Assembly: GCF_963556105.2 (NCBI RefSeq)
Contig: NZ_OY829948.1
Span: 353,306 to 417,305, forward strand
DNA length: 64,000 bases
Direction: 5' to 3'
DNA from: an uncultured Tolumonas sp.
GTDB lineage: Bacteria; Pseudomonadota; Gammaproteobacteria; Enterobacterales; Aeromonadaceae
In this document: positions 44,381 to 50,403 of the stretch, one piece after another
How positions within the stretch are numbered: position 1 is the stretch's first letter
How the letters are laid out: every line of letters starts with the position of its first letter
Made by a program: the position numbers and the translations under genes
Notes under the pieces: model-generated
Told to the model about the DNA's origin: nothing
Seen by the model: only the letters and a program-made list of their open reading frames with translations
Database searches by the model: none

Positions 44381-45619
44381 ATGAGTCAGACAACACCCGT
44401 TTCAGTCGATCAACTTAAAGTCGGTCATTACGTTGTTCTGCCTTTCGGGTGGAGAAATCATCCGTTTTTGTTCAGTTCGTTTCGCATCAAAGATGAAGAA
44501 CAACTGCAGATATTACGCGATCTGGGTGTCAGAGCGATTCCAGTCGATTTAACCAAAAGCGTGGTGATTGAAGAAGAACCTGCACCAACTGAAGCAGAAG
44601 AGCTGCTCGTCGAACCCGAAATAACTATTGCTAATCAACACAAAGCGAAACAACAAGCTGCACGCCGCTCGATCCGGCAAGCAGAGCGCAGTTATACCAA
44701 TGCATTATCCCCGTTGCGCGAATCACTCACCCGACTGAATTTAAAACCGGATGAAGGATTAGCCACCGTGGCGGAATTAGTGCGTAATGCTGCCGTCAGT
44801 CTTGCGGAACAAGAGGGGTCAGTGGGTTTCCATCTAGTGCGCTCGATTCGTAACAGCGATCCACTGCTACTGCATAGCCTCAACGTAGCATTTATTGCCA
44901 TGCTCATCGCCAGAGAGGCGGGGTGGGATCCTCTAGCCATTAAAGATGCCGGCTTAGCCGGGCTAGTTCACGATATTGGTGAATTACGTATTCCTACGCA
45001 AGTGACGCGTAAACGCACGGAGTTAACGAAAGCCGAAGTCAATTTTCTAAAACTGCACGTGCAATATGGGTTTGAGCAGCTGACGCAGTTAAAAGCGTAT
45101 ACACCGGAAGTTCGGCAAGCCACGTTACAGCATCATGAATGTCTCGATGGCTCAGGTTATCCATCAGGTTTAAAAGATGGTGAAATTGCCCCATTAAGCC
45201 GACTGATCGCCGTAGTGGATTATTACGAAGAGCAATTGCATCCGCGTAATGGATTAGGCACCGCCCACCCGAATCAGGTGATCGCCAGTTTATATAAAAA
45301 AGCCAATAAACAATTTGATAGCCAGTTTACGCAGTTGTTAATCAAAGTATTAGGCGTATATCCACCAGGAAGCGTTGTCACTTTAAGTGATGGCACATTG
45401 GCATTGGTCATGTCGAGTGAACCATCAGCACCGTTAAAGCCAATGGTATTACCTTATGAAAAAGGCCGGGTGCAAGAAGGGGTTGATCTGATTGCCTTAC
45501 AAAATGATGAACGCACCATCAGTGGCATCGTGGCACATGAAGAGCTAACGCCACAACAGCAGGAATTCTTCGGCATCACCAGACATGCCTGTTACTATTT
45601 CTCACTGCCGCACGAATAA
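44381..45619 (+). CDS. HD-GYP domain c-di-GMP phosphodiesterase with DUF3391
   Basis: Likely hydrolyses cyclic di-GMP. Of its 412 residues, the N-terminal part (about 1-140) is a DUF3391 domain (VDQLKVGHYVVLPFGW at the start, a charged helix around 85-105). The HD-GYP domain follows with the metal-binding His in LLLHSLNVAFIAML, the HD pair in GLVHDIGELRIP, paired histidines in LQHHECLDGSGYPSGLK (GYP intact) and the AVVDYYEE metal site. All recognisable catalytic residues are kept, so it is probably active. The Shine-Dalgarno sequence is weak (GTGAG). It forms a single-gene unit with a strong terminator. It lies 0.5 kb from a chemoreceptor gene. Confidence 0.93.
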   Translation: MSQTTPVSVDQLKVGHYVVLPFGWRNHPFLFSSFRIKDEEQLQILRDLGVRAIPVDLTKSVVIEEEPAPTEAEELLVEPEITIANQHKAKQQAARRSIRQAERSYTNALSPLRESLTRLNLKPDEGLATVAELVRNAAVSLAEQEGSVGFHLVRSIRNSDPLLLHSLNVAFIAMLIAREAGWDPLAIKDAGLAGLVHDIGELRIPTQVTRKRTELTKAEVNFLKLHVQYGFEQLTQLKAYTPEVRQATLQHHECLDGSGYPSGLKDGEIAPLSRLIAVVDYYEEQLHPRNGLGTAHPNQVIASLYKKANKQFDSQFTQLLIKVLGVYPPGSVVTLSDGTLALVMSSEPSAPLKPMVLPYEKGRVQEGVDLIALQNDERTISGIVAHEELTPQQQEFFGITRHACYYFSLPHE

Positions 45620-45621
45620 AA

Positions 45622-45647
45622 ACAAACCCCGCCTAAAGCGGGGTTTT
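45622..45647. terminator. bidirectional terminator between HD-GYP gene and glycyl radical enzyme gene
   Basis: A GC-rich stem (AAACCCCGC with GCGGGGTTTT) and CTAAA loop, T-run downstream and A-run upstream, between convergent genes. Confidence 0.88.
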
Positions 45648-45652
45648 ATGTT

Positions 45653-48091
45653 TCAGGCTTTCGCTAAGGTATGTTCAGTTCGCGCAATAATATCGTCTTG
45701 AGTATCTGGCGATAGAGCCGTGAAAAACGCCGAATAACCCGCAACCCGCACCACCAGATCCCGATATTGATCCGGATGTTCTTTGGCTGCTAACAAGGTT
45801 TCGCGGGAAACAATGTTGTATTGCACATGCCAGCCTTTGTGTACCTCAAAGAAGGTTCGCAGTAACACCTTCAGTTTCTGACGATCACGTGGTTGTTCTA
45901 AACTCGTTGGATTGAGTTTTTGATTCAGCAGTACGCCCCCCAAAATGGCGGCAGTTGGTAATTTACCCAGCGAATTAAATACCGCTGTCGGGCCGTGGCT
46001 GTCGGTGCCGGATGATGGGCTGGCCCCTTCCGCTAATGGTGCATGTGCTTTGCGACCATCCGGGGTTGCCATGGTTCCAGCACCAAACGGCACGTTGGCA
46101 GAAATAGATGAAGTACCGGCGTAATAGCCGCCACCAATCGGGCCACGACCATAACGGGTATTATGAAATTGGCTGATCTCATCAATAAATGTCTGATAAG
46201 CCCGCACCAGCAGCTCATCCACCGAGTCATCATCATTACCGTATTTCGCGATGCGATTAGCCAGCATCAAACGTAATGCTTCACCCTCTTCGCCGGCAAA
46301 ATCGTTCCCCAATGCAGCTGCTAGTTCCTGCTGTGACAATTTACCGCTGAATACCTGATCACGTACCACCGCTAAACTATTGCCCAGATTCGCAATACCA
46401 ACCTGCAAACCGGATACCCAGTCGTATTTCGCCCCGCCCTGTTTTGCCGTTTTACCACGTTCAATACAATCATCGACCAACGCGGAACACAGAATATCGT
46501 GCGCGTTTTCTTCCAACACGGTATCGACAACACAATCTATCTCAACGGTTTTACGCGTGTAATAACGGATCTGACGATCCCACGCGGCTAATACTTCTTC
46601 AAAATTATGGAAGTTGCCTAAACTGAGCCCTTGCGGCTGTGGCAGGAAGGTTTTTCCGGTTGTGGCATCTGTGCCTTGTTCCAACGCCGCCAGCATGACG
46701 CGGGCAAAATTGACAAAACTCATGCCAGTACAACGATAGCCCCATTTCCCCGGTACTGCCGTTTCAATACAACCGATAGCGGAGTAGTTATAAGCGTCTT
46801 CCACTTCCACACCGAGCTTAATAAATTCAGGAATAACGATTTCATCATTATTGAAAGCCGGCATGCCAAAACCACAACGGATCACCGCCATACAGGCTTC
46901 AAGAAAATCATCGCTCATACCCGCATGGTAACGTACGCTCAAATTGGGCTGTGTAGAGCGCAAGCGACCGCATGATTCGAGAATGGTATAAGAGAGAGGG
47001 TTCACAGCATCAACCGCCGCCCCCTGATGCCAACGCTGACCGCCAATCGTGACATTCTGATACAACGGGCTGCCGGCTGACGCTTTGGAATGCGTGCCGG
47101 AACGGATTTTATTCACCTCCAGCAGTTTCAACCAACAGCAATGCAACAGCTCAATCGCCTGTTCACGCGGTAAGGTTTGTTCTAACTCCACATCACGGCG
47201 ATACCAAGGGTAGAGATATTGATCCATGCGGCCAAACGATACTGAATGCCCGTTAGACTCGATCTGCAATACCAATTGAATGAAATAGCACAGTTGTAAC
47301 GCTTGCCAGAAGGTACGTGGTGGCTGTTGGGCGATCACATCGCAGTTTTCCGCAATCGCTAACAATTCATCTCGGCGCTCAATCCGGTTTTCCTGACTGG
47401 CCATTTGACGTGCCAGTGCGGCATAACGTTGAATATGCTCTGACAACGCCAGCAAGGTTATATCCACCGATTTCAGAAACTGTTCTCGATGCAGATCACC
47501 CCAATCAGCTAAATCGAGCCGTTGCCGCCGCTCCGCGACTTTGGCCTGTAAGCCATGAATCCCCAGCTCAAGCAGTTGCGGATAATCTACGGCCAGATGT
47601 GCATCACCCGAGGTCATATTGCCTTCGGCTTTGATAATGCCGCTGGCCAGAATAGCTTTCTGTTCTTCAGTAAACAGACCATAACAACGATCTTGTACCG
47701 TTTGCCCACGCCAGAACGGTGCTAATTGATGGATAGCGGCTTTATCTTCGGCTGTGACACTAAAACCAGCGCCAGGGCGATCGCCTAATTCATCGATCTC
47801 TTTTTCTACCCAGCCAACGGTATATTCAGGAAAAATCGGTGCCGCGCGTAAACAAGATGCCTGATTACCAACAATCAATTCATCATTGTCGATCCAAATT
47901 GTGCGTTGCTGCAGATGATGCGCCAGCGCCAGCGCACGACGCACGACGATCGGTTTATCTATGTTCGCCTGATAGCTTTCCGTGTAATGACGCGCACGCT
48001 CAGTACAAACCGGCGGTTTGACTATCTCTACCAAACGCCGTTTATGATCACGAATACGCGCAGATAACGTGGTCAGGTCAAGTTCCGTCAT
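45653..48091 (-). CDS. glycyl radical enzyme, YbiW/PflD-type (probable 1,5-anhydrohexitol-phosphate lyase)
   Basis: An 812-residue glycyl radical enzyme, needing anaerobic activation. The radical-bearing Gly785 is in the C-terminal RVAGYSA motif. The thiyl-forming Cys441 is in GCIETAVPG, a single cysteine unlike the Cys-Cys of pyruvate formate-lyase. The context GKWGYRCTGMSFVNFARVM and the overall sequence resemble E. coli YbiW (PflF). YbiW and PflD were reported to open the ring of 1,5-anhydroglucitol- or 1,5-anhydromannitol-6-phosphate, giving 1-deoxyfructose-6-phosphate. The activase gene is two bases upstream in the same operon, and an FSA-type aldolase is divergent. GAGGGGG precedes the ATG. 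The substrate is inference. Confidence 0.88.
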   Translation of the reverse strand: MTELDLTTLSARIRDHKRRLVEIVKPPVCTERARHYTESYQANIDKPIVVRRALALAHHLQQRTIWIDNDELIVGNQASCLRAAPIFPEYTVGWVEKEIDELGDRPGAGFSVTAEDKAAIHQLAPFWRGQTVQDRCYGLFTEEQKAILASGIIKAEGNMTSGDAHLAVDYPQLLELGIHGLQAKVAERRQRLDLADWGDLHREQFLKSVDITLLALSEHIQRYAALARQMASQENRIERRDELLAIAENCDVIAQQPPRTFWQALQLCYFIQLVLQIESNGHSVSFGRMDQYLYPWYRRDVELEQTLPREQAIELLHCCWLKLLEVNKIRSGTHSKASAGSPLYQNVTIGGQRWHQGAAVDAVNPLSYTILESCGRLRSTQPNLSVRYHAGMSDDFLEACMAVIRCGFGMPAFNNDEIVIPEFIKLGVEVEDAYNYSAIGCIETAVPGKWGYRCTGMSFVNFARVMLAALEQGTDATTGKTFLPQPQGLSLGNFHNFEEVLAAWDRQIRYYTRKTVEIDCVVDTVLEENAHDILCSALVDDCIERGKTAKQGGAKYDWVSGLQVGIANLGNSLAVVRDQVFSGKLSQQELAAALGNDFAGEEGEALRLMLANRIAKYGNDDDSVDELLVRAYQTFIDEISQFHNTRYGRGPIGGGYYAGTSSISANVPFGAGTMATPDGRKAHAPLAEGASPSSGTDSHGPTAVFNSLGKLPTAAILGGVLLNQKLNPTSLEQPRDRQKLKVLLRTFFEVHKGWHVQYNIVSRETLLAAKEHPDQYRDLVVRVAGYSAFFTALSPDTQDDIIARTEHTLAKA

Positions 48092-48093
48092 AA

Positions 48094-49008
48094 TTACCCC
48101 CTCAGAATAGCAGTCAGACCACAGGCTTTGGCTTGCTGCTCGGCAAAGGCCAGTAACTCGGGTCGATCAAGTGGTTTTCGGGCACATTCATAATCCAGCC
48201 CGAGTAAATGGTATTTGTGCATGCCGTAGGTGTGATACGGCAGGAAATGGATTTCGCCACTACCACCAAATTGTTGATAGTGCTTCGCCGCTTGCTGAAT
48301 GATGGCCGTCAGCGTTATTTCGTCATCGTTGAAATCAGTAATGATGGGAACACGAAACAGAATGTTGGCGCCGCTTTTGCCTAGTTTTTCAATATTGTGT
48401 TGAATTAAAGGTAGCTGACCATCCGTCCATTGCAGGAATTTATCCGCATCAGTGTGTTTCAGATCAACCAGCCACAAATCAACCAATTCCAGCGATGGTT
48501 CAATGTAATGCCAAGGTATATGCAAACAGCTCTCGACGGCCGTATGAATACCTTCCTGATGAGCGGTGTGCAGCAGCTGTTGAGCTAATTTTGGTTGCAT
48601 AAACGGTTCACCTCCGGACAACGTCAGGCCACCGCCACTACGCTGATAAAACGCGTTATCACGGCGCACTTGCGCCATGATTTGCTCGGAATCCATCTCA
48701 TCGCCACAAAGTGAAATGGCACCACTCGGGCAAGCATCTGCAGCCAGTCGCATCTCATTTTCTGTGAGTCCGTGTCGCAAAATAGTGACTGCTGAAGTGT
48801 TATCCTCGCGTTTAAAACAGGAACTATGTTGCGTGCAACGCTGACACCCCTGTGTACACAGACGTTCGTCATATAACAGATCTAAACTGCGCGACCGACT
48901 TTCCGGATTTTGGCACCAGCGGCAACTGAGTGAACACCCTTTCATGAACACTACCGTTCTGATCCCGGGGCCATCATGGGTGGCATAACGTTGCAGATTG
49001 CAGATCAT
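48094..49008 (-). CDS. glycyl radical enzyme activating enzyme (radical SAM), YbiY-type
   Basis: Uses S-adenosylmethionine and a [4Fe-4S] cluster to create the glycyl radical on its partner. The 304-residue protein has the radical-SAM motif CSLSCRWC (CxxxCxxC) near residue 25, after THDGPGIRTVVFMKG. An inserted ferredoxin-like region follows with cysteines in LCTQGCQRC, SSCFKR and ADACPSGAISLCG, as in activases of non-PFL enzymes. The SGGGLTLSGGEPFMQP segment is the SAM-binding GGE motif. AGGA precedes the ATG. It is the first gene of the operon, about 60 bases from a perfect FNR box. Confidence 0.92.
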   Translation of the reverse strand: MICNLQRYATHDGPGIRTVVFMKGCSLSCRWCQNPESRSRSLDLLYDERLCTQGCQRCTQHSSCFKREDNTSAVTILRHGLTENEMRLAADACPSGAISLCGDEMDSEQIMAQVRRDNAFYQRSGGGLTLSGGEPFMQPKLAQQLLHTAHQEGIHTAVESCLHIPWHYIEPSLELVDLWLVDLKHTDADKFLQWTDGQLPLIQHNIEKLGKSGANILFRVPIITDFNDDEITLTAIIQQAAKHYQQFGGSGEIHFLPYHTYGMHKYHLLGLDYECARKPLDRPELLAFAEQQAKACGLTAILRG

Positions 49009-49066
49009 AATTTATCCTGTCGCTTAGCTTCGACTTTCATTTAAAAACTTTCATTCGAAGTTTATT

Positions 49067-49080
49067 TTGATTTCAATCAA
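49067..49080. promoter_or_regulatory. FNR binding site between activase and fsa genes
   Basis: TTGATTTCAATCAA is a perfect match to the FNR consensus TTGATNNNNATCAA. Towards fsa, TATAGT at 49103-49108 would place the box centre about 41.5 bases before transcription start, the class II activator position. Towards the activase, TTAAAT at 49039-49044 (minus strand) sits at the same distance. Confidence 0.85.
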
Positions 49081-49140
49081 GCTTTATCGCGATTCATATT
49101 TATATAGTGAGATCTGAAAAGTAGATCACAGGAGAGAATG

Positions 49141-49794
49141 ATGGAGTTTTATCTTGATAGTGCCGACCTGAATGCCATTGAACGATTAGCGCGCTATATG
49201 CCCATTCAAGGCGTCACCACTAACCCCAGTATTGTGGCTAAAGGACGTAAACCGTTAGCCACAATACTGCCCGCATTACGTAACATTATTGGTGCAGAAA
49301 ATGTGTTGTTTGCGCAGGTTCTGGCTGATAACGCCGAAGAGATGGTAAAAGAAGCGGAACAGTTGCAGACGCTGGATTCACGGCTGGTGGTCAAGATCCC
49401 TGTAACCCCGGAAGGTCTGTTAGCTATCAAATTACTGAAAGCACGTAACATCCCAACGTTGGGCACCGCGGTTTATTCCCCGATGCAGGGTTTACTGGCA
49501 GCCTTAGCCGGTGCCAGTTATGTCGCGCCTTACGTGAACCGGATTGATGCGCAAGGTGGCAGTGGCATTAAGTGTGTCCAAGAACTACAACAACTGCTCA
49601 CATTGCATGCCCCGCACTGTCAGGTTTTAGCTGCTAGCTTTAAAACGCCACGCCAAGTGTTGGATTGTTTACTGGCAGGCTGTACCAGCGTGACATTACC
49701 GATTGATGTCGCAGAACAGTTGTTACGTAGCCCAGCAGTTGATGCAGCGCTTGTGCAGTTTAATCAGGAATGGCAAGACGCATTCGGTGCATAA
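49141..49794 (+). CDS. fsaA: fructose-6-phosphate aldolase-like transaldolase (FsaA type)
   Basis: A 217-residue class I aldolase of the small transaldolase (FSA) family. Starting at the second of two adjacent ATG codons puts the Schiff-base lysine at position 85 (VVKIPVT), the same number as in E. coli FsaA, with AGGAG six bases upstream. Other family blocks: [54 protein letters not shown] and [19 protein letters not shown]. In E. coli FSA cleaves 1-deoxyfructose-6-phosphate made by YbiW/PflD, giving glyceraldehyde-3-phosphate and hydroxyacetone. The divergent arrangement with ybiY-ybiW is the E. coli one and supports a joint pathway. Confidence 0.92.
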
Positions 49795-49976: not shown

Positions 49977-50053
49977 GGCTATGTAGCTCAGTTGGTTAGA
50001 GCATCGCACTCATAATGCGGGGGTCACAGGTTCGAATCCCGTCATAGCCACCA
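49977..50053 (+). tRNA. tRNA-Met (CAT), elongator
   Basis: 77 nt including encoded CCA. The acceptor stem GGCTATG/CATAGCC, D arm, anticodon loop CTCATAA with CAT at 50011-50013, and T arm ACAGGTTCGAATCCCGT all fold. It closely resembles E. coli metT. Its anticodon stem contains one T-G pair (TCGCA with TGCGG). Confidence 0.96.
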
Positions 50054-50058
50054 TTTTT

Positions 50059-50133
50059 TGGGGTGTCGCCAAGCGGTAAGGCAGCGGATTCTGATTCCGC
50101 CATACCCAGGTTCGAATCCTGGCACCCCAGCCA
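50059..50133 (+). tRNA. tRNA-Gln (CTG)
   Basis: 75 nt with encoded CCA; acceptor stem TGGGGTG/CACCCCA, anticodon loop TTCTGAT with CTG at 50091-50093. Resembles E. coli glnV. Confidence 0.96.
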
Positions 50134-50152
50134 AAAAATTTAAATATCCAGT

Positions 50153-50227
50153 TGGGGTATCGCCAAGCGGTAAGGCAGCGGGTTTTGATCCCGCCATGCC
50201 CAGGTTCGAATCCTGGTACCCCAGCCA
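50153..50227 (+). tRNA. tRNA-Gln (TTG), copy 1
   Basis: 75 nt with encoded CCA; anticodon loop TTTTGAT with TTG at 50185-50187. It appears identical to the next copy, which lies 93 bases downstream. Confidence 0.96.
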
Positions 50228-50245
50228 TCTATTTAAATTCCCAGT

Positions 50246-50320
50246 TGGGGTATCGCCAAGCGGTAAGGCAGCGGGTTTTGATCCCGCCATGCCCAGGTTC
50301 GAATCCTGGTACCCCAGCCA
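50246..50320 (+). tRNA. tRNA-Gln (TTG), copy 2
   Basis: 75 nt, anticodon TTG at 50278-50280. Sequence appears the same as copy 1, with a similar ATTTAAAT-containing spacer before it, consistent with tandem duplication. Confidence 0.96.
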
Positions 50321-50326
50321 TCTCAA

Positions 50327-50403
50327 GGCTATGTAGCTCAGTTGGTTAGAGCATCGCACTCATAATGCGAGGGTCACAGGTTCGAATCCCGTCATAGCCA
50401 CCA
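50327..50403 (+). tRNA. tRNA-Met (CAT), elongator, second copy
   Basis: 77 nt; differs from the first tRNA-Met by one base in the anticodon stem (TGCGA instead of TGCGG), restoring a T-A pair. Last gene of the cluster; no clear intrinsic terminator follows. Confidence 0.96.

What the first reader, a model, noticed from the sequence alone, without database searches (positions are those of the whole stretch)
45653..49794. FNR-boxed glycyl radical enzyme, activase and FSA aldolase: probable anhydrohexitol ("anhydroglycolysis") module
A YbiW/PflD-type glycyl radical enzyme (Cys441 in GCIE, Gly785 in RVAGYSA), its radical-SAM activase and an FSA aldolase with Lys85 are arranged exactly as E. coli ybiW-ybiY/fsaA. 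From memory, those E. coli enzymes open 1,5-anhydroglucitol or 1,5-anhydromannitol 6-phosphate to 1-deoxyfructose-6-phosphate, which FSA then cleaves. A dedicated PTS or kinase and a GldA-like dehydrogenase are not in the window, so the upstream and downstream steps must be encoded elsewhere or differ.
Basis: partly seen in the sequence, partly recalled or inferred. Interest (0 to 1): 0.7.

Follow-up and report, generated by a model that had tools for sequence, protein, structure and literature searches.

The report
Anaerobic anhydro-sugar breakdown genes (ybiW type)
This stretch of a Tolumonas genome carries the same three-gene kit that E. coli uses without oxygen to break down the ring-shaped sugar alcohol 1,5-anhydroglucitol; it is a known kind of system, with some unexpected differences in its partner genes.

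Summary
Window 45653-49794 holds a glycyl radical enzyme (GRE), its radical-SAM activase and, divergently, an FSA aldolase. The GRE is a YbiW orthologue: 77.9% identical to E. coli YbiW, 1461-1468 bits to YbiW structures against 543 for the next, and in the YbiW clade, apart from PflD, CutC and PFL. Published work (Ma et al. 2024, seen only through a review) gives YbiW as the enzyme that opens 1,5-anhydroglucitol-6-phosphate, so this is a new member of a known kind. Added here: (1) the shared promoter holds an FNR box and, 19 bases away, a palindrome that probably binds YciT, a regulator found at this E. coli operon by ChIP-exo. (2) The genome has two glucose-type PTS genes but no GldA orthologue (best 30%), so the last step must differ. 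(3) A sister Tolumonas has two extra ybiW copies near GldA, PTS, PEP-synthase-type, FBPase and YciT genes. (4) Gene neighbourhoods suggest that YbiU (DUF1479), not found in this genome, is an aerobic twin acting on the same sugars. Substrate and pocket contacts could not be tested.

The parts
45653..48091 (-). YbiW-type glycyl radical enzyme, 812 aa (probable 1,5-anhydroglucitol-6-phosphate lyase)
   Evidence: 77.9% identical to E. coli YbiW; PDB 6xs4/8id7/8yjn at 1461-1468 bits, next family 543; Cys441 and Gly785 present; trees
48094..49008 (-). YbiY-type radical-SAM GRE-activating enzyme, 304 aa
   Evidence: 55.7% identical to E. coli YbiY; TIGR02494 317 bits, cut-off 174
49138..49794 (+). 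FsaA-type fructose-6-phosphate aldolase, 218 aa
   Evidence: 63.4% identical to FsaA; NF009296 366.9 bits, cut-off 306; 13 of 13 compared FsaA positions kept
49067..49080 (.). FNR box TTGATTTCAATCAA in the shared promoter
   Evidence: Perfect match; a box with 0-2 mismatches in 85 of 85 distinct divergent spacers
49048..49061 (.). Probable YciT (DeoR-family) operator CTTTCATTCGAAGT
   Evidence: The best CTTTCNNNNGAAAG match starts 19 bases before the FNR box in 80 of 85 spacers; YciT ChIP-exo peaks at the E. coli locus. The window copy itself has 2 mismatches
49103..49108 (+). Possible -10 element TATAGT for fsa, which would put the FNR box centre near -41.5
   Evidence: Read from the sequence; inference only, not found by the promoter scan
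45624..45646 (-). Terminator-like hairpin after the GRE gene
   Evidence: 10-pair stem with T tail; that scan found 5 such sites against 4.8 expected

Best explanation
This is the anaerobic 1,5-anhydroglucitol module known from E. coli, in a Tolumonas genome. A sugar PTS (probably the glucose type) brings in 1,5-anhydroglucitol as its 6-phosphate. The activase puts a radical on Gly785. Through Cys441 the GRE opens the C-O ring bond and gives 1-deoxyfructose-6-phosphate. The FSA aldolase splits this into glyceraldehyde-3-phosphate, which enters glycolysis, and hydroxyacetone. FNR switches the divergent transcripts on without oxygen, and a YciT-type DeoR regulator at the neighbouring palindrome adds substrate control. 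Shown here: gene identity, order, clade, conserved sites, and presence of PTS, FNR and YciT genes in the genome. Inferred from homology and print: substrate and product. Unknown: the fate of hydroxyacetone, because no GldA orthologue was found.
For: Identity and PDB scores; clade placement with the outgroup rows named by NCBIfam; 171 of 181 residues identical to E. coli YbiW in ten motif blocks that I chose, against 631 of 812 overall and 82 of 181 for PflD; E. coli synteny; YbiW function through a review with its reference; FNR box and palindrome conservation; YciT ChIP-exo peaks upstream of ybiUVWY and fsaA; a YciT relative within 6 kb of ybiW in 25 of 80 named loci; YciT, FNR and two PTS IIBC genes in the window genome.
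Against: No assay, and no ligand contacts could be read. The primary paper was not held. GldA, the last enzyme of the E. coli pathway as I recall it, has no orthologue that I could find in the genome. The YciT orthologue scores below the curated YciT cut-off (310.9 against 450). The window's palindrome copy has 2 mismatches, and a genome scan with a related pattern was at chance level (9 against 8 control sites in G000). Structure prediction of the GRE failed (mean pLDDT 45.7) and was not used.
Confidence: 0.86

Rival explanations
1. The enzyme acts on 1,5-anhydromannitol-6-phosphate, as PflD does, or on both epimers.
For: Same product in the published scheme; PflD is a relative, 37% identical.
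Against: PflD groups apart in the tree. The chosen motif blocks match YbiW at 171 of 181 residues and PflD at 82 of 181. The window GRE scores 552 bits on NF007437, against a cut-off of 1109, while the PflD of Tolumonas G065, 72.6% identical to E. coli PflD, scores 1508; G065 has YbiW as well.
Confidence: 0.06
2. It is a diol or glycerol dehydratase, or another GRE chemistry, that has drifted inside the YbiW clade.
For: The next best solved relative is a B12-independent glycerol dehydratase, 543 bits; TIGR01774 is a broad subfamily model.
Against: A 900-bit gap to YbiW; no equivalog cut-off is reached, including the HypD, CutC, sulfopropanediol and decarboxylase models; an FSA gene lies within 6 kb in 60 of 80 named loci, which fits a sugar-phosphate product.
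Confidence: 0.04
3. A pyruvate formate-lyase paralogue, as older annotation says.
For: Old names in PDB and NCBIfam ('formate C-acetyltransferase').
Against: 24.6% identical to PflB; PFL model 143 bits against a cut-off of 994; where PflB has Cys-Cys the window has Gly440-Cys441; the genome has its own PFL.
Confidence: 0.01

Closest known systems
E. coli K-12 ybiU-ybiV-ybiW-ybiY / fsaA (anhydroglycolysis, Ma et al. 2024 JACS, doi 10.1021/jacs.4c07718, seen only as cited in PMC12441222)
   Same: Orthologous GRE, activase and aldolase; same divergent order; FNR-like box and palindrome at the same spacing
   Different: No ybiV or ybiU at the window locus; no GldA orthologue found in the genome. 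The yciT gene is unlinked in both
E. coli pflD-pflC / fsaB-gldA-ptsA-frwBCD
   Same: Parallel pathway for the mannitol epimer (genes)
   Different: GRE only 37% identical; another branch of the tree; linked PTS and GldA genes
Tolumonas G074 island (L140, L141)
   Same: Two further YbiW copies (81% and 77%) with activases; perfect FNR box upstream of each
   Different: GldA, distant FSA (45%), PTS IIBC, YciT paralogue, YbiU, PEP-synthase-type protein, PpsR and FBPase genes in the island; altered loop residues (NAGDAHMAVDYE for TSGDAHLAVDYP)
Aeromonas, Serratia and Vibrio loci with FSA-activase-YbiW-YciT
   Same: Same three genes, FNR box and palindrome
   Different: The yciT gene lies just downstream of ybiW

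Membership tests
YbiW-type 1,5-anhydroglucitol-6-phosphate lyase | Catalytic Cys and glycyl-radical Gly of GREs | tested here: met
   Cys441 and Gly785
YbiW-type 1,5-anhydroglucitol-6-phosphate lyase | Placement with E. coli YbiW apart from PflD, CutC, PFL | tested here: met
   YbiW clade support 94/94 in a 29-row tree without E. coli PflD and 91/96 in an 18-row tree with it; both just under the starred level. Glycerol dehydratase, HypD and decarboxylases were compared by score only
YbiW-type 1,5-anhydroglucitol-6-phosphate lyase | Residues that hold the sugar phosphate | tested here: inconclusive
   No ligand contacts available; proxy only: 171 of 181 residues of motif blocks chosen by me are identical to E. 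coli YbiW
YbiW-type 1,5-anhydroglucitol-6-phosphate lyase | Turnover of 1,5-anhydroglucitol-6-phosphate | not testable with these tools
   Needs an anaerobic assay
YbiW-type 1,5-anhydroglucitol-6-phosphate lyase | Cognate YbiY-type activase in the operon | tested here: met
   55.7% to YbiY; 2-base gap
Anhydroglycolysis pathway | FSA aldolase | tested here: met
   63.4% to FsaA; NF009296 above cut-off
Anhydroglycolysis pathway | PTS able to phosphorylate the sugar alcohol | tested here: inconclusive
   Two glucose-type PTS IIBC genes, 839.7 and 868.0 bits against the NF008301 cut-off of 647; specificity not shown
Anhydroglycolysis pathway | GldA for hydroxyacetone reduction (recalled from Ma et al.) | tested here: not met
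   Best match in G000 30% identical; 233.5 bits against 336 for NF006941 and 176.5 against 700 for NF047954
PflD-type GRE | Placement with E. coli PflD | tested here: not met
   37% identity; separate branch; NF007437 552 bits against 1109
FNR regulon | FNR box plus an FNR with its cysteines | tested here: met
   Box at 49067-49080; Fnr NF008365 477.6 bits, cut-off 228; cysteines in CGGAIHCQDCSISQLC. Binding not tested
YciT regulon | YciT orthologue in the genome and an operator at the locus | tested here: inconclusive
   Orthologue 50.6% to E. coli YciT and best model YciT, but 310.9 bits against a cut-off of 450; operator conserved in position; binding not tested

The most novel reading that the evidence does not exclude
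The window carries only the anaerobic arm of a two-armed regulon. YciT senses an anhydrohexitol phosphate. Without oxygen YbiW, YbiY and FSA open and split it. With oxygen a YbiV-type phosphatase and the DUF1479 protein YbiU act instead: YbiU hydroxylates C1 of the anhydrohexitol, which gives the free hexose (glucose or mannose), and so would fill the unidentified C1-hydroxylase role. In the window genome the anaerobic arm works without GldA, so hydroxyacetone leaves the cell or is reduced by another dehydrogenase.
Probability: 0.28. Interest if true: 0.78.

Novelty: new member of a known kind. Interest (0 to 1): 0.36.

Why it matters
The 2025 review (passages seen) says that 1,5-anhydroglucitol is present in virtually all foods analysed, that its phosphate accumulates in two inherited disorders with neutropenia, and that a probiotic against it would need an enzyme, not yet identified, that works in the presence of oxygen. 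This report places the anaerobic module in an environmental genus, gives it a probable dedicated regulator and operator, shows that genomes can carry it without GldA, and names a testable candidate (YbiU) for an oxygen-dependent counterpart.

Tried and rejected
Structure prediction of the window GRE (13-row alignment, mean pLDDT 45.7) and of YbiU (12 rows, 40.2) was too poor to search with; no fold search was run. A genome scan with CTTTCRWWYGAAAG, 1 mismatch, gave 9 sites in G000 against 8 for the reversed control, and 4 against 11 in G074: no use for finding further targets. Two mismatches keep the window's own site out of that scan; one of the G074 hits (C1:1639267) and one of the G067 hits (C7:45265) are at ybiW promoters. 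The E. coli K-12 record could not be searched there.

A profile comparison of YbiU with the PhyH-like protein of L144 gave probability 0.9%, and a YbiU profile met no oxygenase outside its own family in the PDB sequences, so an Fe/2-oxoglutarate fold of YbiU is recalled, not shown. The PF07350 search found nothing in its 14 control genomes, E. coli being among those controls (named), although K-12 has ybiU; absence in G000 therefore also rests on the protein search.

A CRP site in the shared spacer (TGTGANNNNNNTCACA) was looked for: 1, 2, 3 or 4 mismatches in 4, 17, 39 and 25 of 85, many of them overlapping the FNR box; four Tolumonas spacers (L004, L113, L114, L152) have a 1-mismatch site just before fsa, where the window has 2 mismatches; not pursued. 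E. coli PflD dropped out of the first tree as a duplicate row; the tree was rebuilt with it. The trees lack glycerol dehydratase, HypD and phenylacetate decarboxylase rows. The Gfo/Idh/MocA protein beside YbiW2 in G074 is not a 1,5-anhydrofructose reductase by sequence: best 149 bits to 2ho5, 63.5 to 4koa.
Full report
WHAT IS THERE. The window lies in a 4.0 Mb genome (G000). The closest named record is an uncultured Tolumonas, with a GRE 98% identical. The GRE (45653-48091, minus) and activase (48094-49008, minus) are 2 bases apart, and the FSA gene (49138-49794, plus) diverges from them across 129 bases. Cys441 and Gly785 are in place. A terminator-like hairpin follows the GRE, and a convergent gene for an HD-domain protein with DUF3391 lies beyond it (44381-45619). 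On the other side, after the FSA gene, lie five tRNA genes.

WHAT IT IS. Against solved structures the GRE scores 1461-1468 bits with the three YbiW-type sequences (6xs4, 8id7, 8yjn), then 543 with glycerol dehydratase and 467 with PflD. Pairwise identities are 77.9% to E. coli YbiW, 37.1% to PflD and 24.6% to PflB. It passes the broad NCBIfam subfamily TIGR01774 and no equivalog cut-off, such as those for HypD, CutC, PFL or sulfopropanediol dehydratase. In trees of 29 and 18 rows it sits in the YbiW clade, inside a Tolumonas group, away from PflD, CutC and PFL rows; support for the YbiW clade was 94/94 and 91/96 (outgroup rows named). The activase is 55.7% identical to YbiY and the aldolase 63.4% to FsaA and 62.0% to FsaB. 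5,375 of 5,426 complete E. coli genomes hold a DNA match to the GRE gene, and all five listed are annotated ybiW, so the family is very common.

SUBSTRATE. The library holds no copy of the primary paper. A 2025 review (PMC12441222, passages seen) says that Ma et al. 2024 found both anhydrohexitols to be phosphorylated by a PTS, and YbiW and PflD to cleave the 6-phosphates of 1,5-anhydroglucitol and 1,5-anhydromannitol to 1-deoxyfructose-6-phosphate. Cleavage by FSA and reduction of hydroxyacetone by GldA are from my memory of that paper. Ligand contacts could not be read. As a proxy, in ten motif blocks that I picked around the active-site loops, 171 of 181 residues equal E. coli YbiW and 82 of 181 equal PflD; over the whole protein the counts are 631 and 291 of 812.

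THE SHARED PROMOTER. From the 125 loci examined (L003-L082, L105, L109-L150, L152, L153) and the window I took each activase-FSA spacer of 30-800 bases: 99 spacers, 85 distinct, many from related species, so not independent. An FNR box TTGATNNNNATCAA is present with 0, 1 or 2 mismatches in 37, 37 and 11 of the 85. A second site, CTTTCNNNNGAAAG, has 0, 1 or 2 mismatches in 62, 12 and 11, and starts 19 bases before the FNR box in 80 of 85; shuffled spacers match as well in 0.7% of trials on average. The window copy is CTTTCATTCGAAGT (2 mismatches). A ChIP-exo study (PMC8464067, passages seen) found E. coli YciT, a DeoR-family protein, bound upstream of ybiUVWY and fsaA, found ybiV, ybiY and fsaA changed in a yciT deletion, called its motif palindromic (the letters are in a figure not held), and already suggested that ybiU, ybiV, ybiW, ybiY and fsaA make up one uncharacterised pathway. 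I find the same core once upstream of E. coli ybiV (ATTTCGAATGAAAG, 1 mismatch; 3 of 500 shuffles do as well). A YciT relative lies within 6 kb of ybiW in 25 of 80 named loci and next to it on a Vibrio plasmid. In the window genome the YciT orthologue is at C1:2017718, 50.6% identical to E. coli YciT; YciT is its best NCBIfam model but below the curated cut-off, 310.9 against 450. An FNR with the usual cysteines lies about 6 kb before the window on the same contig. I therefore read the locus as under FNR and YciT; binding in Tolumonas is inferred.

THE REST OF THE PATHWAY IN THIS GENOME. There are two glucose-type PTS IIBC genes, both above the NF008301 cut-off, so a dedicated PTS may not be needed. 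No GldA orthologue was found: of ten Fe-ADH-family matches only one matches GldA in a protein search, at 30% identity, and it is below both GldA cut-offs. Across 75 sampled genomes of the family, at least 37 have a YbiW match of 70% identity or more, 32 of them near full length (counted from the list, which is cut at its weak end). 25 of 75 have GldA at 54% or more. Of the 32 genomes with a near-complete YbiW, 11 lack such a GldA; two of these 11 are assemblies only 63% and 71% complete. So hydroxyacetone must in some genomes be handled in another way, by another dehydrogenase or by export; which one is not known.

A SISTER GENOME WITH AN EXPANDED ISLAND. Tolumonas G074 has the same three-gene locus plus two more YbiW copies, 81% and 77% identical to the window's, about 24 kb apart. 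Near the first are its activase, PpsR, FBPase, a PEP-synthase/PPDK-type protein, GldA (68% to E. coli GldA; 701.6 bits against the NF047954 cut-off of 700) and a distant FSA. Near the second are its activase, a YciT paralogue, a glucose-type PTS IIBC (92% to one of G000's) and YbiU. Both extra copies have a perfect FNR box upstream. G065 has a near copy of the first half of this island beside a PflD locus with frw PTS and ptsA genes. A reason for the PEP-synthase-type gene is my inference: each anhydroglucitol costs one PEP at the PTS and gives back only one, from glyceraldehyde-3-phosphate, so no PEP is left for growth without PEP synthesis.

AN AEROBIC TWIN? YbiU (DUF1479, Pfam Gig2-like) is within 6 kb of ybiW in 38 of 80 named loci: 37 with ybiV, in the E. 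coli-like arrangement, and one, Mangrovibacter, with a yciT gene. It is also in the G074 island. 115 plasmid records have a YbiU-like match (40 listed); I fetched eight, of which seven carry annotation. In 4 of 7 ybiU is directly followed by yciT with no GRE in the stretch: two Pantoea, Erwinia and Duffyella; both Pantoea also carry a HAD phosphatase gene. In 2 of 7 it is beside a gene for an ABC substrate-binding protein and an aldo/keto reductase gene; in 1 of 7 it has neither. Among 369 sampled genomes of the class, 5 have a YbiU match, one of them partial; I fetched the other four. One, L220, holds YbiU-like, LacI, a sugar ABC transporter, a protein that matches 1,5-anhydro-D-fructose reductase at 397 and 393 bits (next 107) and a GlcNAc-2-epimerase-family protein. 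The review says that a Sinorhizobium reduces 1,5-anhydrofructose to 1,5-anhydromannitol and then hydroxylates C1 to mannose with a still unidentified, P450-like enzyme. YbiU fits that place. H203, D205, H340 and H345, an HxD...H arrangement, are kept in at least 47 of 48 YbiU-like sequences. Against: in L219 and L221 the neighbouring Gfo/Idh/MocA proteins are not of the reductase type, and L222 has an aldo/keto reductase instead; in the three rhizobial reductase loci fetched, of 34 plasmid records matched, no DUF1479 gene is annotated nearby, in an incomplete gene table; the review speaks of a P450-like enzyme; and the oxygenase fold is recalled, not shown. Two paper searches, YbiU or DUF1479 (15 of 18 listed) and anhydroglucitol with dioxygenase (10 of 34 listed), showed no such claim in titles and abstract starts; I did not read those papers beyond the passages named here, and the primary paper could not be checked. 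YbiU was not found in the window genome.

VERDICT. An ordinary and sound finding: a YbiW-type anhydroglucitol module in Tolumonas, a new member of a known kind. The added value is the conserved FNR-YciT promoter, the missing GldA, and the lead on YbiU.

Noticed in passing
L140 and L141 (G074:C1:1603000-1642999): Sister Tolumonas with three YbiW copies; the extra two sit in an island with GldA, distant FSA, PTS IIBC, YciT paralogue, YbiU, PhyH-like protein, FBPase, PpsR and a PEP-synthase/PPDK-type protein.
   Followed up: partly
L140:8827-11259 and L141:12882-15311, compared with window residues 155-170: The extra YbiW copies and the T. osonensis copy read NAGDAHMAVDYE where the window and E. 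coli enzymes read TSGDAHLAV(D/N)(Y/F)P; this loop is near the active site in GREs (recalled), so substrate may differ.
   Followed up: partly
L220 (G379:C26:9000-28500): YbiU-like gene in one cluster with a clear 1,5-anhydro-D-fructose reductase, sugar ABC transporter, LacI and a GlcNAc-2-epimerase-family protein: looks like an aerobic anhydrofructose pathway.
   Followed up: partly
L229, L230, L234, L235 (Pantoea, Erwinia, Duffyella plasmids): ybiU directly followed by yciT with no GRE nearby; the bases before ybiU hold GAATGAAG- or GAACGAAG-type half sites, but the full motif is not above chance (50-60 of 500 shuffles).
   Followed up: partly
L232 (Vibrio europaeus plasmid pVeu-CECT8426): The whole module FSA, activase, YbiW, YciT lies on a plasmid, with a perfect FNR box and a palindrome in the spacer and another palindrome before yciT.
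   Followed up: partly
L144:14676-15473 and L141:528-1475: PhyH-type proteins (Pfam PF05721) lie within the PflD island of G065 and the YbiW3 island of G074.
   Followed up: partly
L004, L113, L114, L152 and window 49115-49130: A CRP-like inverted repeat just before fsa in several Tolumonas spacers (1 mismatch in four, 2 in the window); it reaches into the ribosome-binding region.
   Followed up: no
Yersinia loci L005-L008 and L010-L012: These seven ybiW loci lack an FSA gene nearby (L042, Yersinia similis, has it). In L008 the activase shows only as a 114-aa frame, and in the two tested (L005, L008) no clear FNR box or palindrome was seen. Only noted.
   Followed up: no
L236:11610-18880 (Klebsiella pneumoniae plasmid): Next to ybiW, HAD phosphatase and ybiU lie LacI, MFS and a GH31 gene; GH31 includes alpha-glucan lyases that make 1,5-anhydrofructose (recalled).
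   Followed up: no
G000:C5:269382-270738: PTS IIC/IIBC pieces in several frames, some with stops, in the window genome: looks like a decayed gene.
   Followed up: no
49977-50403: tRNA cluster Met-Gln-Gln-Gln-Met beside the module.
   Followed up: no
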